This document shows, in pieces, positions 20,327 through 43,694 of a stretch of 64,000 nt of DNA. The DNA lies in contig NZ_CP045319.1 of assembly GCF_009363255.1 (NCBI RefSeq), positions 124,001 to 188,000 on the forward strand, given 5' to 3'. The notes below the pieces were generated by a model. That model was not told the DNA's origin. It saw nothing but the letters and a program-made list of their open reading frames with translations, and made no database searches. Position 1 is the first letter of the stretch. Every line of letters begins with the position of its first letter. The stretch is from Roseivivax sp. THAF197b (lineage in GTDB: Bacteria > Pseudomonadota > Alphaproteobacteria > Rhodobacterales > Rhodobacteraceae). A program made the position numbers and the translations under genes.

Positions 20327-23300
20327 TCAGAACTTGGCGATCAGGTTCACGAACGCGCCCTTGTCGTCATAGGTCAGGTCCGTGAGGTCATCCGAGAAGG
20401 TCCCGAAATTGTAGCCGATCCCGGCTTTGAAATTATTGCCGAAGTGACGATAGATCGTTCCCACGGCAGATGTCTCGGAGATGCCCGCCTGTTCGGCCTC
20501 GAGGTGGCGCGCCTCGATCAGAAGATCCCAGTTATGCACCACGTGCCAGCGGGCATTGGCCACGGCGAGCCATGCGTCGTTTTCGGCAAAGGGCACGGTT
20601 TCATCGGGGCTGCTGCGCGACCAGCGTCCGCCAAGCTTGCCCCCGACGGACCATTGTTGATTGAGGTCGTACTCGGCATCAATGCTGAGCACATGGCTTT
20701 CCTGACGCGGGCCGTACTGATCCGTGCCGTCGATTTCCTGACCGATACTGTCGAACAGGTAGCGGTACTTGAACAGCAGGTTGAAGCGGTCGTCGAAGAT
20801 GGGCCGGACGGCATAGCCCAGCGTGACCTCGCTATAGGTGCCCGCCTGAAGCGACGCGTTATTGGCATCGATCTCGGAGTAATCGAGATTGAACAGAAGG
20901 CGGCGCTCCTCGTCGATCTCGTAGGTTGCGCCCGCGCTCAGCAGGAACGATTCCAGATCGCGATCGGTGCCGGACAGCGTGCCCTCGTCGACGCGGTATT
21001 CAAGCCGTGCCTTGGCCTGCAGTCCCGCGCCATTGTCGTGACGGATACCGAGCGACACGCCGTTGCGGTCGTAATCGTCATCGTTGCCCGCGTCATCGAC
21101 GCGACCGACCTCGAGCGCGCCGAAGAAGACGGTCTGTTCCGTCGCGCGATACTCCACCCCGTAGGCACTTGTCAGCGCGCGGTGGCGTCCGAACAGATCG
21201 TATGTGTTTTCGCCGAAATAGGTGACATCGTCACTCACCTGACGCCGCCCGCCCGCGACGAAGGTGCCGCGATCCTCGCCGCTCAGGGTCACGCCGCTGA
21301 AATCGCGGCCGGGTTCAAGGCGATAGCCGAGATAGACATTGTCGGTGCCCTCGCCCTGCCGCGTGAACAGCAGCGCACCGCCCAGGCCTTGCGTCCCGTC
21401 CGAGACCTCGCCCTCGATGGTCCAGTTTTCGTTGAAACGATAGCTCACGCCTGCGCCGATGCGGTCGTTCTTCTCCAGCCCGCCCGAGCTTTCCGCCGTG
21501 GCCTGGCCGAAGACGTAGTATTTCAGCCCGTCCCGTGGCTCGACGGTGAGCCGCGCGGCGATGTCGGTGCGCCCGCCCGTGTCGTCCGATTGCGCGGCAG
21601 GGTTTTCGATATCCACATGCTCGATGCCGAAGCTCAGCGTTGTCGTCGACGAGATCAGCAGATCAAGCTCAGCGCCGCCTTCGCGGATCTTCTTTCCGGC
21701 ATCGTCCCGCGCATCGTCGTAATAGAAGCGCAACGCCACGGCCTCGGACGGCAGGAACTCGGCGGAGACGCCCCACAATTCCTCATCGTCGGTGATCTGG
21801 TAATCGAGCGTCGAGAAGCCCGCATCGCGCTTCTCGTAATATCCCGCCACATATCCATCCATGCCGAGGCCCGCATCGGCGAGCCCCACGCGACCGCGGG
21901 CGAGCCACGCATCGCCGGTGCCGTTGGCGACCGGATCGGTCGAGACCACGAGACCCCCGTTCGAGGAGAAGGATGACCCGAAGCCCGGACCGTCCGTCCG
22001 CGCCTGCTCCAGATCGAGATATGTCTCCTCGGAGAAGCGCAGCCGCAGATCCGCGCCCGTCGCGGTCTGATCGGCAAATCCCGTGCGCTCGACCGACCGG
22101 GTCGCACCGAGCCGGACGTAATCGTTCAGCCAGACCTCTGCCCGCGCGCCGAAATTCGTGCCGTCCACCTGGCCGGCCGCCGGGGTATACTCGTACTGCA
22201 CCACGAGATTGACGTCGTATTCGCCGCCGGGATTCGTCACGACGAGGCCCCCGCCGGTCGACCCGGTCAGAGGCGCGTTCAGGATGACCGAGCCTTGCGT
22301 GTAGTTGATCGTGTAATCCCGTCCCTCGGCGAGCGTGCTCGTCGAGACGACCCGGCCGGTATCCTTGTCGCGCAGCTGAACCGTGACCGTCTCGGATCCA
22401 ATGGCAAGATCGGCGTTCTGCAGGAAATAGACCGACCCGCCCGTGCCCCGGAACACTTCGCGTCCGGGCAGGCTGTCCGGGGTTGCGGCGAAGCCCTCGA
22501 CGGAGACGCGGGATTCGCCATGCGTGGTCTGCGCAGGGCTTCGGTAGACCCCCTGGAAGCCGTAAAGCTCCCGCTCGTTGCGCAGGTAATACGTCCCGCC
22601 GATGGTGGATTTGAAATTGCCCCACATCAGGTGGCTGCCGTCACGCTCGGCCCTGAGGTAGAACTTGCCGTCCGACGGCGTGTCATCCTCGATCATGGAA
22701 TCGTCGCCATATGTCGGATAGGCGCTTTCGCGGCTCATGCGCAAAAGCGTGCTGTAGGGATCCTTCTTGTCGAAATCCTCGAAGATCTCGTCGAGATCCG
22801 TCTCGTTCGTGTCGATCGAGCCCGTCAGCGTCCAGCCGCCACGCACCTTGCCCTTCGCATAGGCCGCGATCCGGCCATAGGAATAGGTTTCCGGCAGGGA
22901 CGCGCCATTGGCATCCTTGGGATCGTCGAAGCGCCGACCGAAGGTCAGATCGACCGTTCCGGTATAGAACCATTCATTCGCGGGCACCGTGATGTCGCGC
23001 TCAAGCTGCAGGGCCTGCGCGCGGCCATCCACCTGGACCTGAACCGGGTGATCGCCCGGCGGCAGGATCCGTTGAATGACGAAGCTGCCGGAGGGGTCGG
23101 GCAGGATCGTCTCTCCCAATGTCTGAACCTGCGCGCCGCCGAGGATGTTGTCGCCGCGCACCGTCACCGCGCCGCCATGCACGGGAATGCGCGCGCGCGC
23201 CAGCGTCGAGGTGCCCTCCTCGACCGCGAGGTCGCCAAGCCGGGCAATCGACGCCTCATCCGCACGCAGCGGGATCGGCGCGGTTTCATCGTAGCGCCCG

Positions 23301-23803
23301 CGCGCGTCATAGACCCGGTGGGTCAGCACGAGGTCCTCGCTGTCATCCGGGAGGGTGAACTGCGCAACCCCGTTCGGGGCTACGGGAATGACCTGCACAT
23401 TACGCGGGCCGCCGCGCGCCCCGAGATCCAGAACCCTGAATTCGGCACGCCGGACAAAGGCCGGGTAATTGAGCTGGCTTTGCACCCGCATGACCTGGCC
23501 GGGAACGGTCGGCCCTTCGGTCAGAACGATCGCATCGAGCCGCCGTTTGACATCCAGCCCGTCGAAGGTCACGGCGATATCGGCGGCCTCGATCTGCACA
23601 TCCACCGATTGTGGCGTGCGGGCGCTCGTTGGCGGAGGCGCGATCACGGCGGTGAAATCCTCCGAGACCTGCGCGGGACCGTCTCCGGCATCCACGGAGA
23701 TCACGAAGCCGGATCCTGTCGCCACGACCCCTTGCGCGACAGACGGGCCCGCGAGCACGGACAGGGCAAGCGCCGTGGCGGCGCTGCGGTGGAGCTTGGA
23801 CAT
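20327..23803 (-). CDS. Outer-membrane beta-barrel partner of the giant repeat protein
   Basis: A protein of about 1158 residues. I set the start at MSKLHRSA (23803), which gives a clean signal peptide cut after PSVAQ; GTG at 23821 and ATG at 23818 are in frame and touch the giant gene's stop. Residues 25-290 look periplasmic, with Ig-like pieces (SFVIQRILPPGDHPVQVQVDG region). From about 290 to the end there are alternating aromatic/hydrophobic strands with acidic turns, ending NLIAKF; a C-terminal Phe is the usual signal for BAM-assembled barrels. No TonB box or plug is apparent, though databases may label relatives as TonB-dependent receptors. Being cotranscribed with the giant surface protein, it may export, anchor or cap it. 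That role is inferred. Confidence 0.75.
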   Translation of the reverse strand: MSKLHRSAATALALSVLAGPSVAQGVVATGSGFVISVDAGDGPAQVSEDFTAVIAPPPTSARTPQSVDVQIEAADIAVTFDGLDVKRRLDAIVLTEGPTVPGQVMRVQSQLNYPAFVRRAEFRVLDLGARGGPRNVQVIPVAPNGVAQFTLPDDSEDLVLTHRVYDARGRYDETAPIPLRADEASIARLGDLAVEEGTSTLARARIPVHGGAVTVRGDNILGGAQVQTLGETILPDPSGSFVIQRILPPGDHPVQVQVDGRAQALQLERDITVPANEWFYTGTVDLTFGRRFDDPKDANGASLPETYSYGRIAAYAKGKVRGGWTLTGSIDTNETDLDEIFEDFDKKDPYSTLLRMSRESAYPTYGDDSMIEDDTPSDGKFYLRAERDGSHLMWGNFKSTIGGTYYLRNERELYGFQGVYRSPAQTTHGESRVSVEGFAATPDSLPGREVFRGTGGSVYFLQNADLAIGSETVTVQLRDKDTGRVVSTSTLAEGRDYTINYTQGSVILNAPLTGSTGGGLVVTNPGGEYDVNLVVQYEYTPAAGQVDGTNFGARAEVWLNDYVRLGATRSVERTGFADQTATGADLRLRFSEETYLDLEQARTDGPGFGSSFSSNGGLVVSTDPVANGTGDAWLARGRVGLADAGLGMDGYVAGYYEKRDAGFSTLDYQITDDEELWGVSAEFLPSEAVALRFYYDDARDDAGKKIREGGAELDLLISSTTTLSFGIEHVDIENPAAQSDDTGGRTDIAARLTVEPRDGLKYYVFGQATAESSGGLEKNDRIGAGVSYRFNENWTIEGEVSDGTQGLGGALLFTRQGEGTDNVYLGYRLEPGRDFSGVTLSGEDRGTFVAGGRRQVSDDVTYFGENTYDLFGRHRALTSAYGVEYRATEQTVFFGALEVGRVDDAGNDDDYDRNGVSLGIRHDNGAGLQAKARLEYRVDEGTLSGTDRDLESFLLSAGATYEIDEERRLLFNLDYSEIDANNASLQAGTYSEVTLGYAVRPIFDDRFNLLFKYRYLFDSIGQEIDGTDQYGPRQESHVLSIDAEYDLNQQWSVGGKLGGRWSRSSPDETVPFAENDAWLAVANARWHVVHNWDLLIEARHLEAEQAGISETSAVGTIYRHFGNNFKAGIGYNFGTFSDDLTDLTYDDKGAFVNLIAKF

Positions 23804-23821
23804 ACCAGCCATCCTCATCAC

Positions 23822-26800
23822 TCAGCGTCCCGGTCGAACGACATGGCGTTCGATCTCGAGCCTGTAGGTTCCCCGCCCGCGCCACGCGCGACGGATGTTC
23901 TTTTCCAGCTCCCGCAGGCGTGTACGGGCCTCTGCCGCATCCTCGCCGGGCCGCAGCGTGTAGCTCAGCCGCAGGTAGGAGCGCTGCCGCGCGATCTGTC
24001 CGACCAGACCGTCAATGGCCTGATCGAGCGCGGGCAGCGCTTCGGACTGGCCGGGCTGGAAGGCCTGATGCGTCAGGTCGATCCGCACGAGTTTGCCCAG
24101 CTGCACACCGAAGTTCAGCCGGGTCATCTTGCCTGCCGTGACCCGGACATTGCGCGGGTTCTCTGTGGTCACGCGGAAGCCTGTCGGCAAGCTGCGCGGA
24201 TCGAGCTTGAGCTGGAAGTTCGACCCGATATCGCGCGGAAGCGCGGCACAGGGGACGCTGAAGCGCCCGTATTCATCGGTCGTGATGATCGTTCCGTCCG
24301 GTGTGACGACACGGGCCAGCGGCATGCCGGGCTCGCTCGTATCGGGGCGCAGCGGCTCGGACGACATCTTCCCGCCCTTGCCTGTCTTGCCACCGGGCAG
24401 CACATCGTCGCGATAGATCGGCTCCGGCAGCGTTCCGGGACCGTCCTGATAGCCGTTTCCGTTCCGGTCATGGAAGACCTTGCCGATGATGTCGGCGCAG
24501 TCGAAGACGTGCTCCGGCTCGATGGACACGCTGGCCCTGGCGATATTCGACAGGATGCGTCCGCTATTGTGCTCGATCCATGTCTCGTTGACGCGTTCCC
24601 CGAAGTTTCCGGTCTGCGCCACCCGGGCCGAGAAGGTCACGGGGATCGTGGCCCCCGCCAGGAGATCCGTGGTCCATGTCAGGCGACCGCCTGCAACGAC
24701 GGGCTCCTGCGCGGCACCGTTCACCCGCGCGCTGCCGGGCGTGTAGATGATGCCCGGCGGCAGGTCGTCGACGATGCGTGCGTCGATGTAGTCGTTCTGC
24801 GTGTCGTTCCGGAAGGTCAGGGTGTAGTTGATCGTCTCGCCAAAGACGGCCGTGCGGCGATCGGCGGTTTTCGTTGCGATCACGTCATTCACCCCGGCGC
24901 AGCCCTCGAAGGGGATGTTCACGTTGATGACGAACGGATCGCCCGCTTCGATCACGAAGGTCTGGGTGAAGGGGTTCGCCGCCGCACTGAAATCCGCCAG
25001 GACCCCGGTATTGCCCTGCTCCGGGGAGCCGAGCGCTGCCGGATTGGCCGGAAGAAGCGACGTCACATCCAATGGCCCACCGGACAGGCGCGTCGTGGAG
25101 GGCGCCCCTGCCGAGGGGTCCGTGAAAGTCACGGTATAGGTTCCCGGTGCACTGACCTGGAACTGGTAATACCCAAGGGAGCCATCCTCGACGACCGTGA
25201 TCGGACCGGTCGTGCCGATGCCTGTCTGGGCACTGCCGCCACCGCTGACCGTGACGAGGCCGCCGGTCAGAATTCGCCCGTCATCCTCGCAATAGAGGTA
25301 GCCCGTGGGATCGTAATCGTTCCAATCCGGCACGCCGTCATTGTCCCGGTCTCCGGTTTCGAGGAAGTCGGGAATGCCATCCCCGTCCGTGTCGGTCGTC
25401 TGCACGAGCGCCTGCGCTTCGGTCGGCGTCGGCAGATCCTCGGAGGTGATCGCGGCCGTGTTGGGCGCGCCGGGTTGTCCGGGTGCCGTCGAATAGACCA
25501 GCGTCAGCGTGACGATGCCGGTCTCCCCCGGCGACAGGCGCGCATCTCCGCCGATCAGCCCGGTATCGCCCGTACCGTCGAAACCCGGATTGGGCTGCGC
25601 GTCAGGGCCGAAGCCCGCGACCGTGATATCCAGCGGGTAGGTATCGGCCAGCAAGAGCGCCGGCGCGAGGAAGGCCTCCAGATCGTCGTCGATCTGGATT
25701 TCCGACTGGGTGACATTGCCGGTATTGGTCGCCGTGAAGGTGAATGTCACCCGCTCCACGGTCGGGAACAGCAGCTCGGGCTGGCTCGCCTCCTTGGTCA
25801 GATCGAATGCCGGGAGCGGCACGATCGCACCGACAGTCGGATCGTCGATGCCCGTGCCATCATCGTCCGAGACATCTTGCAACGTCCCGCCCAGCGGCGT
25901 TCTTGCCGCTGCGGTCGCGCTGTTCAGCACGCCGCCCGCATCCAGATCGGCCTGGGTGAGCGTCGCGGTGACGGTATAGGTGGCCGTCTCGCCGGGCGAC
26001 AACGTGCCTTCCGCCGACGGCGGCGTGCCATCCGTACCCACGAAGACGACGCTCAGCGCGCGCGGATCATCGCCCGCGAGCGTGGTCATCTCGTCCGTGA
26101 CCGTGATGTCATTGAGCGTGATATTCCCGGTATTCTCCACCGTGATGTCGAAGGATACAGGCTCGCCCGCTGCGGTCCCGATCTCGTCCAGCGTCTTGAT
26201 CACTTCAAGGGACGGGCTGGGCGCTACGGTGATCACGGTCGGATCGGCGCTGGTATTGCCGTCGGTGAAATCATCATCCGCGGACAGATCGCTAACCGGC
26301 GTGCCATCGGCCGCCACGCCGCGGACCAATGCGGTGTTGCTCAGACCGCCCGCATCCACATCCTGCTGCGTCAGCACATGGGTGACACGCCATATGGCCT
26401 CGTCACCCGGCGACAAGGTGGCGGGCACCGACACTGTCGTGACATCCACATCAAGCAGCGTGCCGTCGGTCCGTGTCAGCGTATCGGTCACGCTGATATC
26501 GCTCAGATCGAGGTTGCCCGTATTGGTCGCGACGATCTCGAAGACAACGGAATCGCCCGGCCTCGTTCCCGGTTCGATCACGCTCTTGATCACGGTCACG
26601 CCGGGCTCCGATGCCGGAACGAAGATGGTTGGATCGTCGGTCTGGTTGCCATCCGTATCATCGCCATCGTCGGAGATGTCCCGAACAGGCGCACCACCGG
26701 GACCCGTTGCGGTGACCGTCACCTGATTGGTCAGGCCACCGGTATTGAGATCCGACTGCGTGAGTGTCCGCTCGGCGGTGTAGACCCAGGTCTCCCCGAC

Positions 26801-29800
26801 ATCGAGAAGACCGTTACCATCGTCGCCGGATGCCAGCGCGAAGGGCGCATCGAGGCTGACCGGATCATTGTTTCCATCGGTCATGACATCGGTCACGACG
26901 ACATTCTCAAGCGTGACATTGCCTGTATTCGCGACGTCCAGGCGGTAGCGCACCTGGTTCCCCGCCACGGAGATCGTTCCGGGCAGCAGGACCTTGGTGG
27001 CCTCAAGTGCTGCAATCTGGGCCGGACCGTTTGTGGTGATGCTGTCGCTCGCCGTGGTCGGAACACCGCCCGGCGCGAACCCGGTCACGGACGCCGTATT
27101 CTCCTGCGATCCGTCATCGACCATGTCTTGCGTCACGACGGTCGTGAGGCTGCAGGCGCGGTTCGTCACACCCGGCGCGAGGCTCGGGATGATGCACGAG
27201 AAATCCGGATCCAGCGGGTCCGTCACGGTGAGATCGGTCAACGTGACATTGCCGGTGTTTTCCACCGCAAAGAGATATGTCAGCGCTGTGCCGACCCCGC
27301 CGAAGGGCGAGGGTGTCGCGGTCTTCGTCAGGCTCAGACCCGGATCCGCGGCAGGCAGGGCGACCGGCAGCGACACTTCGTCGAGAACAGCATTGCCCTG
27401 CGGATCGACGGCCCGGCCCGAGGCGACATTGACCAGCGATCCGGTATCGAGATCGGCCTGTGTCACGATGTAATCACCGGTGCAGACCAGTTGCGCGCCG
27501 GGCGCCAAAGCATCGCTCACGCAGGTGAAATCGTCGATCAACGGATCGCGCACGACGACATTCTCGAGCGTCTGATTGCCCGTATTGGTCGCCGTGACCG
27601 TGAAGGTCAGCTCGTGCCCTGCGCCGCTGACGGGCAGCGGTGCCGCACTTTTGGCCAGCGTCAATGCGGGGGCCAGCGCCCCATCGACGCGCACAACGTC
27701 GGGCTGGGACAGAACGGTCGTATCATCCGCACCGAAGGTCGTCTCCGCGAAGGCCTCGTTCGTGATGAAGCCACGGTCGAGATCCTCCTGGGTCACAGGG
27801 ATCTGCGCCTCACAGGTCACCGTCTCGCCCGGGATGAAATCCGGATCGCTGGCGCTCGGAGCGAAGCAGGGGATCTGGCCGGTCAGCGTGTCGTTGACCA
27901 AAACAGGCTGCGCAAAGGCGCGTGTGCCGGTATTGGTCACCACGAACGTGTAGGGGATGACATCGCCCACGGCGTTGAAATCGGTGACTTCCGCGACTTT
28001 CTCGATGCCCAGCGACGGTATGCCCTCATTCGGCACGAGCGCATCGTCCAGCAGGGACGACGTCGTGCCATCGGTGGCGAAGGCCACGTTGGTCACGCTG
28101 CCGAGGTCCACATCCGTCGCTGTCACGGTGTAGGTGCCGGTGCAGGTATATGTCTCCTCCGGGGCCAGCCCGTCATCGGGGAAGGCCTCGCAGGTCAGGT
28201 CCGCCGGATCGATCAGCGTGTCGACGATCGTCACCGGTTCGGTCACGGTCACATTGCCCGTGTTCGTCGTGATGAAGGTGTATTCGATGACCGCGCCGGT
28301 CACGAAGTCTTCCGCCGGGGTGTCCTGCGCGATCTTTTCAAGCGTCAGCTCGGAGACCTGCGTGGCGGTGATGGTGATCGCCGACGGATCCGAGGTCTGA
28401 TCGTCGAGCGCGGCCGTGGCCGTATTCGTGATCTGGCCTTCATCGATATCGGCCTGCGTCACGCTCAGCGTCGCGGTGCATGTCAGCGTCGCGTCAGGCG
28501 CAAGACCCGTCGCCGGAACCGCCTCACAGACCGGCGCGACGCCGCGCTCCGCCAGGATCGGATCGTCGATCTCAACCGTGCCGAAGAGCGTGATGTTGCC
28601 CGTATTCGTGACGGTGAAGAGATACGGGATCGTCGTGCCGATAGTATCGAAGCTTGCCGGTGCATCCACTCCAAGCTCTTTGAGGAGCGCAATCGACGGG
28701 TCGGCCTCGATGACCTGCTCGGCCGGGTCGTCCAGCACATCCGTGAGCGGGCTGCCGATCGGCGGGGTGCCGATCACGGCAACGCTGTTGGACACGCCGC
28801 CCGCATCAACATCCGCCTGCGTCAGCGTATAGCTGACGAGGTAATCCGCCGTCTCGCCCGGCAACAGGACCCCAAGGCCGGAGCCAAGATCCGCCCCGGT
28901 GAAGACCGGCGCGGGCGCAGGGGTGATCGACGTTCCGTCGAGACGGCGCAGCGTCTCCTCGGTGATCGCGACATCGCTCAGGGTGACATTTCCGGTATTG
29001 GTGATCGATACCGTGAAGTCCAGAACCGCGCCAACCTCGGTCGCCGGGGTGCTGACGATCTTCGCCACGTCAATCCCCGGCATCGCGGGAATGGACACGG
29101 TGGCAGGCTCATTGCCGGTGCCGCCCGGGGCGCCGTTCCCGGAAATGTCCTGGGCCAGCGTGTCATCCGGGGACAGACCGCGCGCGATCACGTTGTTCGA
29201 GATGCCGCCCGCATCGATATCCGCCTGTGTGAGCGTGTATTCCGCCCGGTAGGTCCAGGTTTCGCCAACCGCCATGACGCCAGGTGCGCCTGTATCGCCC
29301 CCGGTCAGGACCGGCGGGTTGTCGAGGGTCAGTTCGGTGCCATCGTTGCGGCGCAGGGCCTCGATCAGGGTGATGCTGTCGAGGGTCTGGTTCCCGGTAT
29401 TGGTGAGCGTGATGTCGAACCCGGCCACGTCGCCCGCGACGGGCGGGTCGCTCAACCCGGCATCGTCGAGCAGCTTCACGGCGGTGATGGCGGGAGATGC
29501 CGGATCAACGGAAACCGACACCGTGTCCGTATCGCTTAACGGGGCGCCCTCGGGGTCTTCTGCGACCACCGTCGCGGTGTTGGTCAATGTCACCTGCGCA
29601 TCGATATCGTCCTGGGTCACAACATAGAAGGCGCTGAATTCCGCCACATCGCCGGGCCGCAGCACATCCCAGACCCCGTCTTCCACAGCGTCGGTGCTAT
29701 CGCCCGTCGGTGCTTCATCCGCCAGCAAGGTATCACCGCCGATCGCGAGCGCGACGGTTCCGGAGGCGGAGGTGTGATCATCCGCGACCGTCACGTCGGT

Positions 29801-32800
29801 CAGGGTCTGATTGCCCGCATTGGTGACGCGGTAGCTGTAGCTGAGCGTCGTGCCGACCGTGACGTCGCCCGTCTCCGACGGGATCTTTTCGAGGATCAGC
29901 GCGGGTGCCGCCGTGACGGGCAGCGTCAGCATGGCGGTTTCACCCCCGGGCACGTCCGGAAGGGCAGCCTGATCCGAGAAGGCCCGCGCGAGATTGGTCA
30001 GCTCGCCTGAATCCACGTCGTCCTGCGTGACGATGTAGTCGGCGGTGCAGGTCAGCAATGCGCCCGGTGCCAGGCCGCCCGCAGGCAGTGTCGGGCAGGA
30101 CACTTCGTCGATCTTGTCGTCGGTCACCGAAATCGGCGTGGTCAGCGTGACGTTCCCGACATTCGTGACGGCGTAGCTGTAGGTGATGACCTCTCCGGCC
30201 TCGGTAACCGCGGCGGTATCGGCGGACTTTTCGAGTGCCACCTCCGGTGCGGCATCGGGCCCGCGTGCGGTCACGTCGCCCACACCGGTGACGACAGCCG
30301 CATCGGGCGCGGCACTGGTGCCGGTGGCCGTGGCCGTGTTCACGAAAGAGCCGAAGCCATCGCCCGGTTCGCCATCGATATCGGCCTGGGTCACCGTGTA
30401 GGTGACCGTGCAGAGCGTGTCTGTCTCACCCGGGGCAAGCGTGCCCACATCGCAGGTGGCAGGCACCACCGGCAGATCGTCGGTGATCGAGATGTCGTCG
30501 ACCGTGACATTGCCATCATTGGTCACGGCAATCAGGAAATCGACGGTATCGCCCACTTCCGTGAAGACGGGCTGACCGCCTGCCGGTGTCGGCGTCACGG
30601 ATTTGACGACGGTCAGGACCGGCGCGGGCGTCGCGAGCGGAACCTCGGCACTGTCCTCGTCCTCCACATCCGCGCCCGTCGGATCGAAGCCGCGGACTGC
30701 GCCTGTATTGGTCAGGCTCTGCGCGTCGAAATTGGCCTGTGTGACCGTATAGGTCCCGGTGCAGATCAGCGCCGCATCGGGTGCCAGCGCAACATTCGCA
30801 GGCGCTGCGACCTCGTCCAATGTACAGGTCAGATCCGGCAACAAGGGATCCGTGATCGTCACGCCGGAGATCGTCTGGTTGCCCGTGTTGGTCGCGGTCA
30901 GCGTGAATTCGATCACATCACCGGTCGTCGCGGCCGCCGGTGCATCGCTCAGAACCTTTTCCAGTTCGAGCGCGGGCTCAGCGTCCGCCGACACCGTCTT
31001 GACGGCGGGGTTGGAGCTGACCGGGCGCTCATTGGGCGTTCCGGGGGCGAAGACTGTGTTGGCCACCGCCTCGTTGGTGACAAAGCCCGCGTCCAGGTCC
31101 TCCTGCGTGACGGGATAGACCGCCTCGCAGGTGAAGCTTTCGCCAACACCGAACACACCTTCGGAGGCCGGACGGCACGGGAAAGGCGCGTCGAAACGAT
31201 CATCCGTGATTGTGATGTCCTGATCGAACGCGACGCTGGAGTTATTGGTCAACGTGTAGGTGTAGGTGATTTCGTCGTCTGCTTCCGCGTAGGTCACATC
31301 GGACGGATCGCTGTCCTTGACGAGCGTCAGGGCCGGCTGGGCATTCACCGGATAGATCGCATCATCCGCCGGGGAGACGACAGGCGCGTCGTCGAAGGTG
31401 CCGTTCGCCGTGGCGATGTTGTTGACGGAGCCGAGCGCGATGTCTCCGTCGAGGATCGTGTACTGCGCCGAGCAGGTCAGTTCTGCGTCGGGCAGGAACA
31501 AACCGCCTGCCGGAGCCTCGCACGAGACCGCATCGATCAGGCTGTCATCGACGGAGATCGGCCCGTCGACGGTGACGTTGCCCGTATTCGTGATAGTAAA
31601 CGTGTAGTCGAGCACCGTGCCGGGGTTGAACGTGTCCGGCGTCGCGGAGACCAATTCCTTGGTGATGCTCATCTCCGGCGTCTGGATCGCGGTGACTGTG
31701 ACGCTGTCCTCGTCCGAGATGACCGGGGTACCGTCATAGACCGTATTTCCGGTGGCCACGTTGGTCACTTCGCCCGCATTCAGGTCGGCTTGGGTGACGT
31801 CGTAGCTATGGGTGCAGGTCACGGAGCCGCCGGGCGCAAGCGGTCCGGTGTCACAGGGCAGATCGTCACCGATCCGGTCGTCATCCACGGTGAACGGCCC
31901 GTCCAGCGTGACATTTCCGCTGTTCGTGATCGTGAAATCGTAGCTGATCGTGTCTCCGACCGTATCAAAGGTGCCGGCAGACTGCGCCGAAAGGGCCTTG
32001 GCCACATCAAGTGCCGGGCTCTGGGTGGCGGGGACCGTCACGCCGTTGCTGGCCGCCGTGGCGGTGACCTCGGTCGGAGCGCCGGGTGCTTCCGGAACCA
32101 CGGGCTGCGTCACGCTCGCATCTGCGGTGTTGACCACTTCCCCCGCATCGAGATCGTCCTGCGACACGACATAGCTGCCGGAACAGGTGAGCGACGCGCC
32201 CACCGCAAGCGGCGGCGCATCACAGACAATCGCGCTTTGCGTTTCGATCAGGGGATCGCTGACCGAAATCGGCGCTGTGATCGTGATATTGCCCGTATTG
32301 GTGACGGTGAAGCTGTAATTCAGCGTATCGCCCACAGCGCTGAACGGGTTCGGACCGGAGTCGAGCGCCTTTACCACCGCGATCTGCGGTGCGCCTGCCA
32401 CTGTGACGAGGGTCGGATCGTCCTGACCCGTGCCGTCATCGTCCGAGACGTCGGATACCGGTCCATCCTGCGGATCGGTGGCGTTGACCGTCACCTGGTT
32501 CTCGACGCCGCCCGCATCGATGTCGTCCTGCGTCAGCGCATATGTCGCGCGGTATTCCCAGATCTCACCAACCTCGATCGCGCCAGCAACGCCGCCATCC
32601 CCGGAAACCAGGCTCGGCGTCAGGCTCAGCGGTGTGCCATCGCGACGCTGGAAATCCTCATCCAGCGTGACGGAATCTAGCGTCACATTGCCCGTATTCT
32701 CGACATTGATGACGAAGGTGATCGTGTCGCCCACTTGCGTCGGCGTCTGGAGCCCGCTGGTGATCGCCGTCTTCACGACCTCCAAGGCGCCATTCGTCGG

Positions 32801-35800
32801 AATGGGTGTTTCGGTCGGCGCATCGCTGTTCGCATCTTCGCCGCTCAGATCATCGGTCGGCGTTCGGTCCGGTCCCTCGGCCGATGCCGTGGCGGAGTTC
32901 TCGACCAGACCGGCATCGATATCGGCCTGGGTCAGGGCATAGGTGGCCGTGAAGATCACCGGCGCGGCGCCCACGGCGATATCCGGGCCATCGCCGTCGC
33001 CATCGATATCAGCCCCACCGGACGACAGCGTTGGCACAGGCGCGGTCCCTGCCCCGCCGAAGCCCGTTTCCGTAACGCTGGCATCAAACAAGGTGACGTT
33101 GCCGGTATTCTCGACATTGTAGGTATAGCTGATCAGGTCACCCACGCTCGCAATGCCATCCGCCCCGAGATCGAGGGAGGAGGTCTTCACAAGGGTCAGA
33201 GCCGGGGCGCGCGTCAAAGGCGTCTCTGTCGGATTGTCCCCGGCGGGGTTCGTGCCATCGTCGGACACATCGCTTGTCGGGGTGCCGTTCGGGCCTTCGC
33301 TTTCCGCGAGCACGGTGTTGCTCAGACCACCATCGTCGATCGCCTCCTGCGTGACGGTCGCCTCAGCCGTGTAGGTCCAGACCTCGTCCACATCGAGGAA
33401 CCCGTCGCCATCCGTGTCGCCTGTGCTGAATTGCGGCAGCGTGCTCAGCGTCTGGGCTGTGCCTTCGGCTGTGGTGAGCGTGTCCGTGAGCACTGGCGGA
33501 TCGAGCGTGACCGTGCCGGTATTCTCGACGGTGATCGTGTAGGTCACGGTATCGCCGGGCACCGGCGGCGCCGAGAGCGATGCCGCGGCGGTCTTCACCA
33601 CCTGAAGGCTTGGCAGTTCGGTAAAGGTCGTCTCGGTCGGCGTGTCGTTGTCATTCGCGGAACCAGACGGATCGCTCACGGGCTGGCCTGCGGGATCATC
33701 CGCACTCGCCGTCGCCTGGTTGGTCACGCCGCCCGCATCCACATCTTCCTGGGTCAGGACGTAGGTGGCGGTGAAGGTGATCGTTTCACCAACCGCAACA
33801 TCGAGAACCGCGTTGCCATCGAGATCCGAGCCGCCCGACGCATAGGCCGGTACGGGCAGTGTTCCGGTACCGGTGAACGACGTCGCAGCCTCGGTCACCG
33901 TCGCATCGAACAGCGTCGCGTTGCCGGTATTCGTGATGACGTAGGTGTAGGTGATGCTGTCGCCCGCCTCGACGCGGCCATCACCGCCGTCGTCAACGGA
34001 TGCGGATTTCACCAGCGCCAGAGCCGGATCCCGCGCGATGGGCACCTCGACGGGCGCATCGATGCTGTCGGTGACCTCCTGATCCTGCGGATCGGTCGCC
34101 ACGGCGGAGACGGTATTCTCGATACCGCCCGCATCGAGCGCCTGCTGGTCGACATCGAAGCTCGCCGCGTAGATCCAGGTCTCACCGACCTCGAACACGC
34201 CGTCCCCGTCATCGCCGGAGGCCAGCGTCGGTTCGGATGTCAGGCTCAGCGCCTCGCCGTCGGCATCCGTCAGCACATCGGTCAGAACAGGCGCGCTCAG
34301 AGTGACGTTGCCGGTGTTTTCCACCGAGATCTCGAACGTGATGGTCTGCCCAAGTTCGACCGGATCGGTGAGGGCCGTATCATCTGCCGTTTTCGCGATC
34401 TCCAGCGCCGGGGCGAGACCGAGCGGCGTCTTTGTTGGCACATCGTCGTCATTGGCCGCGCCAGAGAGGTCGGTCACCGGCTGACCTTCGGGATCATTGG
34501 CACTGGCCGTGGCCTGGTTTGTCACGCCGCCCGCATCCACATCTTCCTGGGTCAGGACATAGGTGGCGGTGAAGGTCACCGTCTCCCCGACCGCAACATC
34601 GAGAACCGCGTTGCCATCGAGATCCGTGCCGCCCGACGCATAGGCCGGGACGGGCAGTGTTCCGGTGCCGGTGAACGACGTCGCAGCCTCGGTCACCGCC
34701 GCATCGAACAGCGTCGCGTTCCCGGTATTCGTGATGACGTAGGTATAGGTGATCTCGTCCCCGACATCCGCACGGCCATCGCCGCCGTCATCGAGCGTGG
34801 ACGATTTCACCAGCGCCAGCGCAGGCGCGCGATCGATCGGAACAACGACCGGCTGCGGGAGATCGCCAGTGACAGGGCTGTTTTGCGGATCCTGAGCCGT
34901 GGCGGAAACGGTATTCTCAATACCGCCCGCATCGAGCGCCTGCTGATCGACCTCGAAGCGCGCGGTATAGGTCCAGATCTCGTCGACCTCCAACGCGTTG
35001 TCGCCGTCGTCACCGCTTGTCAGCTGCGGTTGCTGGCTCAAGGTCAGCACGTCGCCATTGGCGTCGGTCAGGGTGTCGGTCAGAACCGGCGCGGTCAGCG
35101 TGACGTTGCCCGCATTCTCGACGGTGATGGTGAAGACGATTTCCTGCCCAAGTGCCACCGGATCGGTCAGGGCCGTATCGTCCGCGACCTTCGTCAGAAC
35201 CAGTTCCGGCGCCTTGGTAATGGGCGACACGGCTTCATCCGCTGTATCCGACGCGGGGCCGCTCGCGCCCGGGCCGGTTCCCGTCACGCTCGCGCTGTTG
35301 GTGATATCCGCCTGCGCGTCGAGATCCTCTTGAGTGACCGTGTAGGTTGACGTGAAGGTCACGATGTCACCGGGTGCAAGGCTGCTCCAGATGCCATCAT
35401 CGGGGGTGGCATCGGTCGACGTGCCGATCTCGTCCACATCGGAGCTCAGCGTGTCGCCCCCGACCGTCAGAGCCTGCGTGCCGTTCGCGGCACTGTGCTG
35501 GTCCGAGACCGTCACATCCGCCAGCGTCACGTTGCCGGTATTCTCCACGGTATAGGTGTACGTGATGACCTGCCCTGCGGTGACACCGCTTGTGACATCC
35601 GCCGCCTTGGTCAACAAAACACCCGGCTCCTGGCTGGCCGGGATCGACAGGGTGTCGCTGGCCGGGTCAGGTACTTCGTCACTGGTGGCGGTGGCGGTAT
35701 TGGTCATGGCGCCGCCGTCCAGATCGGATTGTTCGACCCGGTCCGTGGCGGTGCAGCTGTAAAACTCCGAAGGCGCGATCCCACCGGCGGGCAGGCCGCT

Positions 35801-38800
35801 GCAGACAAAAGTCCCGATGCGGTCATCGGTGATCTCAGGCTCTTCGAAGAGCGTCACATTGCCGATATTGGCGATGGTGTAGCGATAGGTGACAAGTTCG
35901 TTCCACGTGTCGATTTCCGACGTGGTCGATTCCTTGACGAGCGAGAAGCGCGGCTCGCGGTCGGGGCCCTGAACGAAGACCGCGCCATCATCCGTGGCCT
36001 CGTCCAGCGCCGGATTGAGGGGCGTTGCCACCCCTGTCGCGACGTTTTCGAAACCCGCATACACCGTGGAGCCATCGGAGCTCGCGGCATCGATGTCGGC
36101 TTGCGTGACCGTGTAGACGAATTCGCAGGTGCTGTCGCTTTCGCCCGGCGCAAGCGTGCCGATGGTGCAGCTGACCGGCGAGACGGGCAGGCTGTCGGTG
36201 ATCGTCGTGCTGGCTTGCGTGACATTGCCGGTATTGGTGACCGTGATCGCGAAGGTCAGCGGTTGGCCGGGATCGGTAAAGGCAGGCTGACCGCTCGCGG
36301 GTGCGGGCTCGATGGTCTTGACCACGTTGATGGACGAGATCGGCGTCACCAGCGGCTGATCGACCGTGTCGGTGCCGCTGATCGTGTCGCCCTGCGGATC
36401 GGTCCCCGTGGCGTCAGCGGTGTTGGTCAGGCTCTGGTTATCGATATCGGCCTGCGTCACCGTATAGGTGCCGGTGCAAAGCAGGGTCTCACCGGGCGCG
36501 AGCACGACATTCGCAGGCGCGGCCGCACCGCCGATGGTGCAGGTCAGATCCGGGATCAGCGTGTCGGACACGGCAATCCCCGAGATCGTCTGGTTGCCGT
36601 CATTGGTCGTGGAAATCTCGTAGGTCAGCACATCGTCGACGCGGGCCACGTTGCCCGTCAGCGCGGTGGTCATTTGCTTGTCGACGGTCAGCACTTCCTG
36701 CTGGTCAGCCGTGATCGTCTCGGATGCGTTGGGCGAGCGCACCATGGTCGCGGGCCCGGCGGGAGCATAGATCGTGTTCGCCGTCGCGTTGTTGGTCAGC
36801 TCGCCATTATCGAGATCGTCCTGCGTAATGAGATAAGGCACGTCACAGACATGCGTCTCACCCGGTGCAAAGACGGGAACGGTGCCGCCAGCCGCCGCGC
36901 GGCAAGGCAGCGTGCCCATCACGTCATCCTCGATCGTGATCGCGTCCGATAGTGCGACATTTCCTGAATTCTCCACCGTGAACCGGTAGGTGATGACATC
37001 ACCGACCGTGTCATAGGGCAGGTTCGTGGGCAGCGCCGCTTTCGTCAGCGAGAGGGCGGGGTCCGCATCCACCGGGTAGATCGCCTCGTCGCTGGGCGAT
37101 TGCACCGGATTGCCATCGAAGACCCCCGTGGCGAAGACCACGTTTGTCGAGGAACCCAGATCGATATCGTTCTGCGTGACGATATGCTCGGCCGTACAGG
37201 TCAGCGTGTCCCCGGGCGCCAGCTCGCCCCCCGGGACGGCCGGACAGACCGGCGTCACGAGGTTGTCTGTCAGGGTAATCGGCGCATCGATGGTCACAGT
37301 GCCATCGTTGGTGACGACGATGGTGTAGCTCAGCGTATCGCCCACGGTGAAGAAACCGGGGTTATCCGTGCCCGTGAAGGTCTTTTCCACGGCAAGGGAG
37401 GGATCCTGCACGGCGTTGATGGTCACGCTGGCGGGCTGGCTTTGAACCGGGCTGCCGTCGAAGACCGTGTCGGCCGTGGCCACGTTGGTCACCTCGCCCG
37501 CATCGAGATCGTCCTGCTCCGCGACCCAGTCATCTTCGCAGATGACCTGCGCACCGGGTGCCAGCGGCGTGGCGGTACAGGTCAGCGTCCCGGGGATCTT
37601 GTCGTCATCGACCGTGATCGGCGCGGTCGTCGTGACATTGCCGATATTCGTGACCACGTATTCGAAGGTCACGACGTCGCCCACATTGTCGAAACTGGAA
37701 GCACTGGTGCTTTTGACGCGCTTCGCGATCCGCAGCGCGGGCTGCTGATCCACGGTCACGGTCTCGGTGTCGTCGTCGCTTGCTGTCACGGTCGTGGGAT
37801 CGCCGGGCGCGCGCGGAATGACGGCCTGCGTGACCTCCGCATCCGCGAGGTTTTCGACGAAGCCGCGGTCAAGATCGACCTGAGTGACCCGGTATTCGCC
37901 GGTACACGTATACGTCGCCCCCGGCGCCACGCCGCCCGCAGGCAGCGTCGGGCAATCCACGTTCGGGATGAGCGGATCGGTGACGGTGATGTCGGAGGTC
38001 AGGGTGATATTGCCCGTGTTGGTGACCACGAAATCATATGTCAGGGTCTGGCCCACGCTTTCGAGCGTCCCGGCAAAGGTGCTTTGCTTGTCGAGCGAGA
38101 TCGCAGGCACCTGTGCCGGGCCCGCGACGGTTTCCGTATCACTCGCGCTGACCGGTGTGCCCAGAACGTTGGACGCGCCCGTGACGGTCACGGTGTTCGA
38201 GAAGCTGCCCGCATCCACATCCGCCTGATCGAAGGTCTTCGTCACGCTCAGCGGCGTCATGCCGTCCGCGCAAAGCGTCGTGCGGTCGCCCGGAAGAAGG
38301 TCCGGAAGCGCGCAGGAAAATGCCGGATCGGCGTCCGAGATCGACAAACCACTCAGGGTCACGTTGCCGGTATTGGTGACCGTGAAGCTGAAGGTTTCCG
38401 TATCGCCAACGGACCCGTAAAGGCCGTCGGTCGACACCTTGTCCACGGTCAGCGCGGCATTCTCGGCAGGGCCTTCAACGACGACCGTATCGGATTGCCC
38501 GGGAGGCGGCGTAACACCGGTCGGCGCATCGGCGGTCACATCTGCGGTGTTCGTGATCTCACCCGCGTCGAGATCCGGCTGCGTGATCGTGTAGCTCGCG
38601 GTGCAGCTGAGATCGGTGGCACCCGGCGCGATCGCCGGGATGGTACAGCTGACGGGAGCGCCGAAGAACGGGTCCGAGACCGAGACATCGGTCAGCGTCA
38701 CATTGCCGGTGTTGGTCACGGCGAAGGTGAAGTCGACCACCTCGCCCACGGCGGAGAAGCTCGGATCGGCCTGCTTGTCGAATGTGAAGGACGCGGTGCG

Positions 38801-41800
38801 CGCGGGGCCTGTCACGGTCGCGGTGTCGGAGAGCGGGCCGACATCCGGCGACGACACGCTGCCGGTATTCGCCACCTGGCCTGCATCGATATCGTCCTGC
38901 GTCACGGTATGCGTGTAGGTGCAGGACGTATCGGTCACACCGGGCGCGAGCGTGGGGATCAGGCAGGAATAGCCGGGATCGAGCGAATCCGTGACCGTAA
39001 TGCTGGTCAGCGTCTGGGTGCCGGTATTCTCGACCGAGAATGTATAGAGGATCGTGTCGCCCACAGCGTCGAACGTGCTGCGATCGGCGTCCTTGGAAAA
39101 GCTCAGCGCCTTCGTGGCGTCGGCGGGATCGATAAGGGCCGTGCTGCTGCTCGTCTGGGTCAGCTGCGCGCCGCGCGCCGGGACCGCAACCGCCGTGGCG
39201 GTGTTCGGGATCTCTTCGGCGTCCACATCGGCTTGAAGAACGGTGTAGCTGGCCGTCGGGCAGTTGGCCGTGGCGCCCGGTGCAATATCCGACAGGACAC
39301 AGGAGAAGCCGGGGATCAGCGGGTCGCTCACGGTGACATCGGTCAGAGTCACGTTGCCCGTATTCGTCACGCTGAAATCATAGCTGAGCGACTGGCCGAC
39401 CGTATTGAACTGCACCGGGCCGGTCTTCGTGAAGGTCATGGCGGGGGTCGCATCGACCGGCACGCTTGCGCTGCTCGCGTTGGAGCGGATGGTGACGGTG
39501 GTGCCGTTCTCGGTGAAGGGCACACTTGCCGTTGCCGTATTATCGACCTGGCCCGCATCGAGTTCGGCCTGCGTGATACCCACCCGCGTTCCGGTGCAGT
39601 CAAAGCTGTCGCCGGGATTGAACTCCGCCGGTTGCGCGGAGCAATTCGCAGGCGATGTCAGCGCCGGGTCGGTGATGGAGATCGGCTGACCTGCCGCGAG
39701 GACTTGCGTGTTGCCGGTATTCTCGACCGTGAAACGATAGGTGATCGTATCGCCGGTCGCGGAGACACTGGCGGTGTCCGCGCTCTTGGTGAGGGTGATC
39801 TCCGGATTGCGATCGGGCGCGATCTGCGCGCTGTCTTCGGCGGAGCGCGTCGGACCCGCGATGGCTTCTGCCGTGTTCACCACACGCCCTGCAAGAATGT
39901 CGTCGTCGGTCAGGGTGTAGTTTTCGGTACATTGCACCGTCTCGCCGACATCCAAGGGCAACGGGGCACAGGTGAAAAGCCCGATCTTGTCGTCATCAAT
40001 GGTAATCGCGGGCACGCCGGTCGAGGCCTGCGTCAGGGTCACGTTGCCGGTATTGGTGACATCGAACGTGTAGGTGACGACGCGGCCGGTGGCGAAATCC
40101 GCCGCGGCCACGACGGGCGCGGTCTTTTCGAGGCCGAGCGCCGGGTTCTGGTCTGCGCTCACCGTGACCGTGTCGCTGTTGCTGCTGACCGGTTCGGCCG
40201 GAGCTCCTACCCCCGTCGCGGTGGCACTTGCAATGTTGGTGACGGAGCCTGCATCGAGGTCCGGTTGCGTCACCACGTAATCATCGGACGTACAGGTCAC
40301 CGAGGCACCGGGCGCGATCTCGGTCGCGGCACAGGTCACGTTGACCTTGTCATCGGTGACGGCGAGCGTGTTCAGCGTCACGTTGCCGGTATTGGTCAGG
40401 ATATAATCGTAGGTGAGGACGTCGCCGACCGTGTCGAACCGCGTGGCGGATCCGGCATTCAGGCGCTTGTCGAGGGTCAGACCGGTGGTCCGAACGGCGG
40501 GCACGAGCGCGTCGTCGCTGTCCGATGCGCTCAGCGCGCCCACGGTCGCCGAGAGCGATGCGGTGTTGGGCACCTCGCCCCGGTCGAGATCGTCCTGCGT
40601 GACCGCGTAGGTCGCGGTACAGGTCACCGAATTGCCCGGCTCGATGCTGCCTGCGGGACAGACCGCACCCCCGGTCAGCGTGTCCGTGATCGCAGGTTCC
40701 GGCAGGGTCACGTTGCCCGTGTTGCTGACCAGGAACTCGTACTGGATCACGTCACCGACCGCATTGTAATCCGCTGTAATCGCGGTTTTTTCCAGGGTCA
40801 GGTCAAGCGTCGGCGTATCACCCGGCACGCTTTCGCTGTCTGTCTCTGAAAGGTCCGTGCCATCCGGGGCGGTTGCCGTCGCCGTCGCCGTGTTGTCGAT
40901 CGTATAGGCGGGATCGGCCGCCACGGAATTCACATCCGCCTGCGTGACCGTATAGCTGCCGGAGCAGGTGAAATCGTCACCGGGCGCGAGATCGGGAACC
41001 GTGCAGACGAGCCCCGGCAACAGCGGGTCGTCGATTTCGACCTCGGACAGCGTGACGTTGCCATCGTTCCGCACGAGGAAGTCGTAATCGATCGTATCGC
41101 CTGCACCGCCGAAGGACGTGGCCGATGTGGATTTGTCGAAGAACAGGACCGGGTTGGCGGTCGGTCCGGTCAGCGTCACCTGATCGCTCAATTGGCCAAG
41201 CGTGCCGAAATCCGGCACGCCTTCGGCTATGGCGATATTGGTCACAAATCCTCGGTCGACGTCCGCCTGCGTCGTCGTATAGGTCGCGGTACAGGTACTC
41301 GTATCCGGCGCGGGAGAGCCGCTCGGGCGGTCAAGGATGACCGTGTCCGCGCAAGTAACAGTCCCGATCTGGTCGTCTTCGACGGAAAGCTGCCGGATCG
41401 GCACCGAGCCAATATTCGCAATCTCGTATTCGAACGTAACCACTTCGCCCGGAGCGGTGAAGCTTGACGCATCGGCGGTCTTCTCGAGGGTATAGCCCGG
41501 CGCGACCGTCACGATATCCTGATTGCCCAGCGACGGCCCGCGACGGAAATCCCAGTAATTGTCGTTGGGGTCGTCGTCGAATACCTGCGTCACGGTCTGG
41601 CCCGTGGCGAGGATGTTGTTCAGAAGTGCGGGATTGCCGGAGGAGAACCAGCCGGTATTGAACGTGTTGTTGCCGAAGCCGGTCGTGAAACCGAAGCTCT
41701 GCGTGCCGTCATTGTTGGTGATTTCCGTCGTAAGCCCCGACCAGCTGCCGACATTGAAGCCGTTGATGATCAGCGAGATGTCGTTCTGATCAAATCCACC

Positions 41801-42184
41801 AGGCTGCGTATCGCCATCGAACGCACTGAAGCGGATGTAGATCTGCGAGAGACCACCGCCGAAATAGTCGGTGCAGCTCGAGAACCCGCAATCCAGCGAG
41901 ATGGGATCGTTGATCGTGAAGGGGTTGCCCCTGAAAGCGGCAGGCTGACCGTTATTCTGGAAGCCAACGAAGGCACCGTCAGGATCCGAAAACTGATAAT
42001 AGAGGTTGCCGTTCACGCCCTGCAGCACGATCGCGACGCCGCCCGCATCCGGATAATCATCCGGCAAAACGATGGAGGTTCCGGGAACGGTTGACGTGAA
42101 GGGCGTGGCGCCAGCCAGGGTGCCTGCAAACGCAAACCAAACCATGCTCAAAAGCCGGACGGCCCGCTTAAATTTCGGACTCAT
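23822..42184 (-). CDS. Giant secreted repeat protein, about 45 DUF11/DUF7507-type Ig-like domains, SdrD-B-like and OmpA-like C-terminus
   Basis: A 6120-residue protein in one uninterrupted frame. Residues 1-25 are a Sec signal peptide (cut near TLAGA). An N-terminal domain of about 200 residues holds cysteine pairs. From about 227 to 5590 there are 44 tandem Ig-like repeats of about 110-140 residues, each opening with a hydrophobic-x-hydrophobic-x-Lys strand, then a G(D/E)xxxY strand, NTGNVTL, an acidic (D/E) end, often a Cys pair around LAPG, YTVTQADxDAG and a closing N-T-A strand. Next comes [20 protein letters not shown] (about 5590-5620), a thrombospondin-3-like calcium motif, then a Cys-containing SdrD-like domain, a canonical DUF11 repeat (about 5765-5890), a second SdrD-B-like domain beginning [15 protein letters not shown] (about 5898), and a short divergent OmpA-like tail (about 6035-6120). 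The sequence is Asp/Thr/Val-rich with few basic residues. A GGAAGG site precedes the ATG. It is probably a surface adhesin or fibre. No RTX, LPXTG or autotransporter barrel is seen; the barrel is the next gene. Confidence 0.9.
26600..28700 (-). repeat. Higher-order repeat block, copy 3 (shortened) in the giant gene
   Basis: Repeats 36-41 (about residues 4495-5195) follow the order B-C-D-E-F then a Cys-free module, lacking G and H. The first module starts like A ([13 protein letters not shown]) and ends like B (ITITATQ), suggesting an A-B fusion by unequal recombination. Divergence from copies 1 and 2 is larger than between those two. Confidence 0.55.
29080..32390 (-). repeat. Higher-order repeat block, copy 2 (modules A-I) in the giant gene
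   Basis: Repeats 26-34 (about residues 3265-4369) match repeats 11-19 one by one: A with [14 protein letters not shown] with [12 protein letters not shown] ending DDAIYPV, D with PCRPASEG, E with NQTISG and [10 protein letters not shown] with [11 protein letters not shown] with LPAGGLAP, H with [16 protein letters not shown] of the Cys-free type. Copy 2 lies about 5.7 kb from copy 1. Confidence 0.75.
33640..35228 (-). repeat. Recent 798-bp tandem duplication (two-repeat unit) in the giant gene
   Basis: Repeats 19-20 and 21-22 are nearly the same. The segment beginning GTCACGCCGCCCGCATCCAC occurs at 33723 and again at 34521, an offset of 798 bases, exactly 266 codons or two 133-residue repeats. 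Long stretches differ only at scattered, mostly silent positions. Confidence 0.85.
34826..38113 (-). repeat. Higher-order repeat block, copy 1 (modules A-I) in the giant gene
   Basis: Repeats 11-19 of the giant protein (about residues 1358-2453). Ordered landmarks: A with [14 protein letters not shown] with [12 protein letters not shown] ending DEAIYPV, D with PCRAAAGG, E with NQTISG and [11 protein letters not shown] with [11 protein letters not shown] with LPAGGIAP, H with [17 protein letters not shown] of the Cys-free type. The same order recurs in copy 2. Confidence 0.75.
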
Positions 42185-42610
42185 TAAAAGGGCCTTCCCG
42201 AAATACGATTCCCATCAATATTCGTACGGTCGGGATGTCCGCCGCGCCACATGGAGACGGTGGAAGTTGATTCTTGTGCCCTTTTAGCAACGCCGATAAA
42301 ACGATTATTTTTCAAATATTTAAGATTTCTTGCCTATTTTCTGAACACGTTTAATGGGCGATTTGCCGCCAAGTCACGTTGCCGTGTTCAAATGGGCGCA
42401 GCAGCGTGTCCGCCTCCTGTCTCGAATTCGCCAAACACCGAGAGACGCGGCAAGAATTAGGCGATTGCCTTCTGCGCACGGCTCATCTGCGTCATATCAC
42501 ACATGCCGCGCCTTGCGTTTCAGGGCGTTCGGAACAATTTAAGCGCAAACATTCTGCAATCGTCCGCCATTCGACAACATGGTCGGCCTCCGACGAACGG
42601 GCCCCTCTTC
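42185..42610. promoter_or_regulatory. Intergenic region between giant gene and RND efflux genes
   Basis: A 426-base gap between divergent genes. Bases 42296-42345 are strongly AT-rich, unlike their surroundings, and are the likely promoter area for the giant gene. A 9-base inverted repeat, TAAAAGGGC (42185-42193) and GCCCTTTTA (42278-42286), brackets its probable leader. The right half (42350-42610) shows open frames but none with a good start or recognisable product. Confidence 0.4.
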
Positions 42611-43690: not shown

Positions 43691-43694
43691 ACCC

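What the first reader, a model, noticed from the sequence alone, without database searches (positions are those of the whole stretch)
20327..42184. Giant 6120-residue surface fibre encoded with a dedicated outer-membrane barrel
One uninterrupted 18.4-kb gene encodes a signal peptide, about 45 Ig-like domains, a calcium-type linker, SdrD-B-like modules and an OmpA-like tail. The next gene, touching its stop codon, encodes a beta-barrel protein with a periplasmic N-domain and terminal Phe. There is no type I, autotransporter or classic two-partner secretion signature. This suggests an undescribed two-gene system in which the barrel exports or anchors a very long fibre; at roughly 4 nm per domain it could reach 150 nm or more.
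Basis: partly seen in the sequence, partly recalled or inferred. Interest (0 to 1): 0.85.

Follow-up and report, generated by a model that had tools for sequence, protein, structure and literature searches.

The report
Giant surface fibre with giant barrel
A marine bacterium carries a gene for an enormous fibre protein, probably cross-linked inside, next to a gene for an unusually large outer-membrane barrel; the two genes travel together across many bacteria, which suggests an undescribed way of putting very long fibres on the cell surface.

Summary
An uninterrupted 6,120-codon fibre gene is followed directly by a 1,164-codon outer-membrane barrel gene. The fibre carries about 45 DUF7507/DUF11 (CLIPPER) domains; nearly all keep the Lys/acid/Asn triad of an internal isopeptide bond.

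The pairing is real. In 394 genomes of the family the barrel occurs in 45 and the fibre's C-terminal module in 40, all 40 among the 45. In 46 of 52 barrel places the two are adjacent or fused; the other six are contig ends or fragments. The pair also occurs in other Alpha-, Beta- and Gammaproteobacteria, and fused forms exist. Three lone barrels and two lone modules were seen.

Head and stalk of the fibre vary; the C-terminal module and the barrel stay constant, so the module probably docks on the barrel. The barrel is predicted, at moderate confidence, to have about 38-40 strands. Its best solved match by fold is SprA, the T9SS translocon; no sequence kinship was found. The 'OmpA-like' tail is weak and degenerate.

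The fibre is a known kind (CLIPPER fibrillar adhesin). The dedicated giant barrel was not found described in the paper searches made here. Export through the barrel is the best inference, unproven.

The parts
23822..42184 (-). fibre gene, 6,120 aa
   Evidence: RefSeq homologue in pTHAF40_a annotated 'DUF11 domain-containing protein'
42107..42184 (-). signal peptide, about residues 1-26 (judged by eye)
   Evidence: sequence; no signal-peptide program was available
41528..42106 (-). N-terminal head, residues 27-219, candidate tip domain; no Pfam match at E 0.01 and no convincing PDB relative
   Evidence: relatives of residues 1-235 found in 12 of the ORFs searched (partners cut by contig ends cannot show a head), whereas the C-terminal module is found in nearly all partners
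25442..41527 (-). stalk, residues 220-5581: 44 DUF7507/DUF11 (CLIPPER) repeats
   Evidence: over all 45 repeats: Lys 45/45, acid 45/45, Asn 43/45, two Cys columns 29/45 each
25316..25396 (-). Asp-rich DxDxDG linker, residues 5597-5623
   Evidence: sequence
24587..24898 (-). last, divergent DUF11 domain, residues 5763-5866 (4.6 bits in the repeat profile; Pfam DUF11 above cut-off)
23825..24379 (-). C-terminal module, residues 5936-6120: SdrD_B-like part then degenerate OmpA-like part; the constant part of the fibre
   Evidence: alignment A2 of 46
20327..23821 (-). barrel gene, 1,164 aa
22976..23746 (-). N-domain of the barrel protein, residues 26-282, two predicted beta domains (about 81-179 and 212-280), presumably periplasmic
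   Evidence: model; CarboxypepD_reg weak (E 0.19)
22472..22975 (-). first 6-7 predicted barrel strands, residues 283-450
   Evidence: model
22187..22471 (-). inserted beta domain, residues 451-545, plug-like position; holds 4 of the 7 invariant columns of the 48-sequence alignment A4
20330..22186 (-). remaining 32-33 predicted strands, residues 546-1164, ending in Phe

Best explanation
A two-gene fibre-display system. Shown by sequence: the fibre is a chain of about 45 Ig-like CLIPPER domains with isopeptide triads, a variable head, and a constant C-terminal module; the barrel gene is its dedicated partner. Inferred: both proteins reach the periplasm by Sec. The barrel, with about 38-40 strands and an inserted plug-like domain, is put in the outer membrane by BAM. 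The fibre's C-terminal module docks on the barrel's N-domain at the periplasmic mouth. The stalk then passes out through the wide pore, its domains folded or folding, while the module stays behind as the anchor. The result is a covalently locked fibre, perhaps 150-200 nm long at about 4 nm per domain, for attachment to surfaces. It would work like the T9SS translocon SprA exporting the giant adhesin SprB, but with one dedicated barrel and no T9SS tail.
Confidence: 0.5

Rival explanations
1. Anchor only: the barrel with its N-domain holds the C-terminal end of the fibre in the outer membrane, but the fibre crosses by another route, for example a T2SS.
For: The constant element is an anchoring-type module. 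OmpA-anchored CLIPPER adhesins are known, and no exporter is named in the passages read (PMC12617251, PMC10952558).
Against: No other secretion gene was recognised among the ten neighbouring ORFs scanned in the window or among the annotated neighbours of pTHAF40_a and the S. meliloti plasmid. T2SS-like genes follow the pair in one of the three annotated records viewed, Eleftheria. An anchor would not need about 38-40 strands.
Confidence: 0.2
2. Type V-like: the fibre is threaded unfolded through the barrel as a hairpin, as in autotransporters, and folds outside.
For: Fused forms have the autotransporter order, passenger first and barrel last. The gene order fibre-barrel resembles two-partner systems.
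Against: The barrel is about three times larger than an autotransporter barrel (the 12 strands of the latter are recalled). No autotransporter or POTRA family was found. 29 of 45 repeats fill the two Cys columns, which could form a disulphide in the periplasm.
Confidence: 0.14
3. Envelope scaffold or uptake complex: the long protein stays in the periplasm, or the barrel is a nutrient channel as the 'TonB-dependent receptor' labels say.
For: 7 of the 20 plasmid records label the relative 'TonB-dependent receptor'. A sugar-type ABC operon lies next to the window pair.
Against: No Plug or TonB receptor domain in Pfam. The neighbours differ between the three annotated records viewed. A stalk of 45 domains is far longer than the periplasm is wide (general knowledge).
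Confidence: 0.1

Closest known systems
CLIPPER (DUF11/DUF7507) fibrillar adhesins, e.g. Acinetobacter silvestris B9T28_05395 (PMC12617251, passages read)
   Same: Tandem CnaA-like Ig domains with Lys-Asp-Asn triads, N-terminal head, C-terminal anchoring module
   Different: 6,120 against 2,129 residues; the C-module is not a Pfam OmpA match; a dedicated giant barrel is encoded beside it. No barrel partner is mentioned in the passages read.
T9SS translocon SprA with its giant adhesin SprB (6,497 aa; PMC9870892, PMC7807042 and PMC7463736, passages read)
   Same: Giant filament plus very large barrel; SprA is the best solved match to the barrel model
   Different: No sequence match to SprA; no T9SS C-terminal domain (PF18962) found in the genome; dedicated adjacent gene pair in Proteobacteria, while the abstract of PMC7463736 (listing) calls T9SS specific to Bacteroidetes
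Chaperone-usher FimD/PapC
   Different: No chaperone or pilin domain among the ten window neighbours scanned; no usher Pfam match; more predicted strands; one-chain fibre
Type V secretion (autotransporter, two-partner)
   Same: Order passenger then barrel, fused or split
   Different: No PF03797 or POTRA match; barrel size; CLIPPER stalk

Membership tests
CLIPPER fibrillar adhesin | tandem DUF11/DUF7507 domains | tested here: met
   45 DUF7507 and 17 DUF11 stretches (overlapping) over two halves
CLIPPER fibrillar adhesin | Lys, Asp/Glu and Asn of the isopeptide bond | tested here: met
   45/45, 45/45 (39 Asp, 6 Glu), 43/45; order as in the DUF7507 template Lys72-Asp112-Asn152 of PMC12617251. 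Bond formation itself was not tested.
CLIPPER fibrillar adhesin | adhesive head domain | tested here: inconclusive
   head of about 200 residues without Pfam match; one PDB match at E 0.94, not convincing
CLIPPER fibrillar adhesin | surface location | not testable with these tools
   inference only
OmpA-like peptidoglycan-binding tail | Pfam PF00691 match in the fibre tail | tested here: not met
   0 of 46 modules; window tail not among the 11 matches in its own genome
OmpA-like peptidoglycan-binding tail | remote kinship of the last ~100 residues with OmpA domains | tested here: inconclusive
   hhalign probability 36-47%, P 2e-4 to 4e-4; 0 of 200 column shuffles reach the score (best 20.3 against 27.1), reversed profile 13.1
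T9SS translocon SprA | sequence kinship (SprA_N PF14349; SprA chains in PDB) | tested here: not met
   not among Pfam matches of P0002 at E 1; no SprA chain with profiles A1 and A4. The PF14349 genome search had no positive control and shows nothing.
T9SS translocon SprA | fold of a very large barrel | tested here: inconclusive
T9SS | cargo C-terminal domain (Por_Secre_tail) in the genome | tested here: not met
   0 matches; among the controls it rings only in Bacteroides ihuae and below cut-off
Type V autotransporter / two-partner | PF03797 barrel, POTRA or TpsB domain | tested here: not met
   none at E 1; YadA_anchor only 13.6 bits against a cut-off of 22.7 (9 of 48 relatives also match it weakly)
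TonB-dependent receptor | Plug and TonB receptor domains | tested here: not met
   the label in 7 of 20 records has no Pfam support for the window protein
Type I secreted adhesin | adjacent ABC/MFP/OMF genes | tested here: not met
   ten neighbours: the HlyD-like gene sits beside an AcrB-type pump gene; the ABC genes go with periplasmic binding protein and permease genes

The most novel reading that the evidence does not exclude
A new outer-membrane secretion system, widespread in Proteobacteria. A single dedicated barrel of about 38-40 strands, larger than SprA, exports folded, isopeptide-locked giant fibres without any T9SS machinery. The fibre's own C-terminal module is both export signal and anchor. 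It would supply the missing export route for CLIPPER adhesins in these bacteria.
Probability: 0.35. Interest if true: 0.92.

Novelty: new variant of a known kind. Interest (0 to 1): 0.72.

Why it matters
How Gram-negative bacteria move very long, covalently locked adhesins across the outer membrane is not explained for CLIPPER proteins in the two papers whose passages I read: the word 'secretion' occurs 0 times in the main text of each. A conserved two-gene cassette that can be deleted cleanly in a marine bacterium makes the question testable. If the barrel has about 38-40 strands it would exceed SprA, which a 2020 review calls the largest outer-membrane barrel identified (PMC7463736), and it would be a one-protein analogue of the T9SS pore.

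Tried and rejected
Ordinary neighbours by chance: rejected. Assembly artefact: rejected by the circular plasmid pTHAF40_a. TonB receptor, T5SS, T1SS: no domain support. T11SS: the paper PMC12282271 came up largely because 'DUF11' also matches DUF1194; the passages shown name DUF11 once, as a domain found with DUF1194. Sphingomonad plasmid paper PMC10734547: the passages do not concern this pair. Viral contigs: no relative. PDB sequence searches gave only generic barrels or unrelated proteins. Search for SprA_N in the own genome is uninformative because no control rang. Paper searches listed no paper on this pair by title or abstract start; only listings and the passages named were read, and most subscription journals and preprints are not held. 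A profile-profile comparison with real SprA sequences could not be made, as none was at hand.

Limits of counts: the genome search scores few candidates per genome, so second copies were missed; two were found later (L129, L130) and are in the 52. The two family searches each report 394 genomes and the same handles where listed; the unlisted ones I take to be the same sample. Alignment A2 was built from the window and 45 proteins next to barrels, after five duplicate loci were dropped from 50; the independent test is that it finds no barrel-free genome. One search used 541 complete repeats from 38 proteins; partial or low-scoring repeats were dropped. At class level a 265-codon barrel fragment on a short contig (L122) was left out of the count. 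Of the matches I fetched 20 places, 15 of the P0002 type and 5 divergent. Of 20 plasmid records I viewed 5, two of them without annotation.

Full report
What is there. The window holds, on the minus strand, one open frame of 6,120 codons (23822-42184) followed without a gap by one of 1,164 codons (20327-23821). The window lies on a 234-kb contig whose neighbours around the pair match plasmid pTHAF40_a of Roseivivax sp. THAF40, isolated from a polyethylene particle. There the fibre is one annotated CDS, with the same stop-to-stop frame of 6,130 codons and 44 repeats, so the length is not an assembly error.

The fibre. A profile made from the protein itself finds 45 repeats, 44 above 10 bits. 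Pfam calls them DUF7507 and DUF11. These are the CLIPPER_2 and CLIPPER domains of PMC12617251 (passages read), Ig-like domains predicted, and in one case shown by crystallography, to have an intramolecular Lys-Asn isopeptide bond helped by an acid. In the window the Lys column is kept in 45 of 45 repeats, the acid in 45 of 45 (39 Asp, 6 Glu) and the Asn in 43 of 45; two Cys columns are filled in 29 of 45 each. In 498 complete repeats of the partner proteins of relatives the numbers are 495, 493 and 491, and 283 and 282 for the Cys columns. The repeats are diverged, mean identity 38%, except repeats 19-22, where a two-domain unit seems to have been duplicated more recently (87% and 64% identity).

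The C-terminal module. The last 185 residues are strongly conserved in 46 proteins, the window's and 45 partners. Relatives of the N-terminal head were found in only 12 ORFs, though some partners are cut by contig ends, and the repeat number ranges from 0 to 44. Pfam sees SdrD_B in 10 of 46 modules and OmpA in none. The last ~100 residues align in register with true OmpA domains (probability 36-47%), above all of 200 column shuffles, without the GHTD stretch seen in most of those OmpA domains. I read it as a degenerate OmpA-like domain, not as a working peptidoglycan anchor. In Eleftheria and in G515 clear OmpA domains sit at the start of the barrel protein instead, so the junction between the two proteins is where such domains occur.

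The pair. In 394 genomes of the same family the barrel is found in 45 and the C-module in 40, all within those 45. Of the five barrel-only genomes three have the barrel at a contig end and two hold only fragments. Of 52 barrel places 46 have the module: 44 directly upstream on the same strand, one in reversed order (G385), one fused (G374); the other six are contig ends or fragments. Two orphan modules exist, in G062 and G206. In the genus only 1 of 9 genomes, the window's own, has the barrel at E 1e-20, so the distribution is patchy, as a plasmid-borne trait may be. At class level the barrel is in 11 of 385 genomes; of eight P0002-type loci fetched from there (a ninth, a fragment, left out), four are adjacent to a module, one is fused and three (G516, G620, G707) have no partner on either side. 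At phylum level 57 of 398 genomes match; of 20 places fetched, 15 are of the P0002 type and all 15 have the module, 14 upstream and 1 fused. In all five plasmid records viewed, pTHAF40_a, Sinorhizobium meliloti, Eleftheria terrae, Vibrio campbellii and the cyanobacterium Kovacikia, a repeat protein lies directly upstream; in the cyanobacterium the module match is weak (23 bits) and in Vibrio it covers only the first half.

Fusions and a divergent branch. Three single-chain forms join a C-module to a barrel: L080, L117 and L151; the first two keep only the SdrD_B-like half of the module. A more distant branch has open frames mostly of about 1,400-2,400 codons that match only the first part of the barrel well. 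In 7 of 10 such loci viewed a smaller repeat-bearing ORF lies upstream, and several carry a weak, partial module match of 15-24 bits in the same chain. The window's own chromosome carries one such pair.

How it most likely works. Shown: gene pair, constant module plus constant barrel, variable head and stalk, isopeptide triads. Inferred: the module docks at the periplasmic mouth of the barrel, since fused forms put it there; the barrel is wide enough, if the strand count is right, for Ig-like domains. The Cys pairs and self-closing isopeptide bonds speak for a wide pore rather than threading of an unfolded chain. SprA (36 strands, pore about 7 nm, large enough for folded cargo; PMC7463736) and the T9SS-secreted adhesin SprB (6,497 residues; PMC9870892; secretion by the T9SS, PMC7807042) are the working analogue; these papers were read in passages only.

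Novelty. The fibre is a very long member of a known kind. The dedicated giant barrel was not found described in the paper searches made here. I file the whole as a new variant of a known kind and keep a new secretion system as the bold reading.

Noticed in passing
own genome contig C1 2638000-2650000 (L079: 888-3557 and 3565-9492): A second, divergent pair in the same genome: an 889-codon repeat-bearing open frame followed by a 1,975-codon DUF11 + SdrD_B + barrel protein, 29% identical to the window barrel over residues 317-610.
   Followed up: partly
L080, L117, L151: Single-chain fusions of fibre module and barrel (2,635, 4,548 and at least 2,079 codons); L080 has CarboxypepD_reg repeats in place of CLIPPER repeats.
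   Followed up: partly
L123 (G385): Reversed gene order: barrel first, then a 3,520-codon fibre with the same C-module.
   Followed up: no
L112, L113, L116: Barrels without a recognised fibre or C-module on either side; possible partners in trans or another role.
   Followed up: partly
window 42503-46757 (+): RND efflux adaptor and pump genes divergent from the fibre gene; the same neighbours occur in pTHAF40_a.
   Followed up: no
window 20327-42184; pTHAF40_a (L124): The pair sits on a plasmid-like contig syntenic around it with a plasmid of a polyethylene-surface isolate; RefSeq names the barrel 'hypothetical protein' there.
   Followed up: partly
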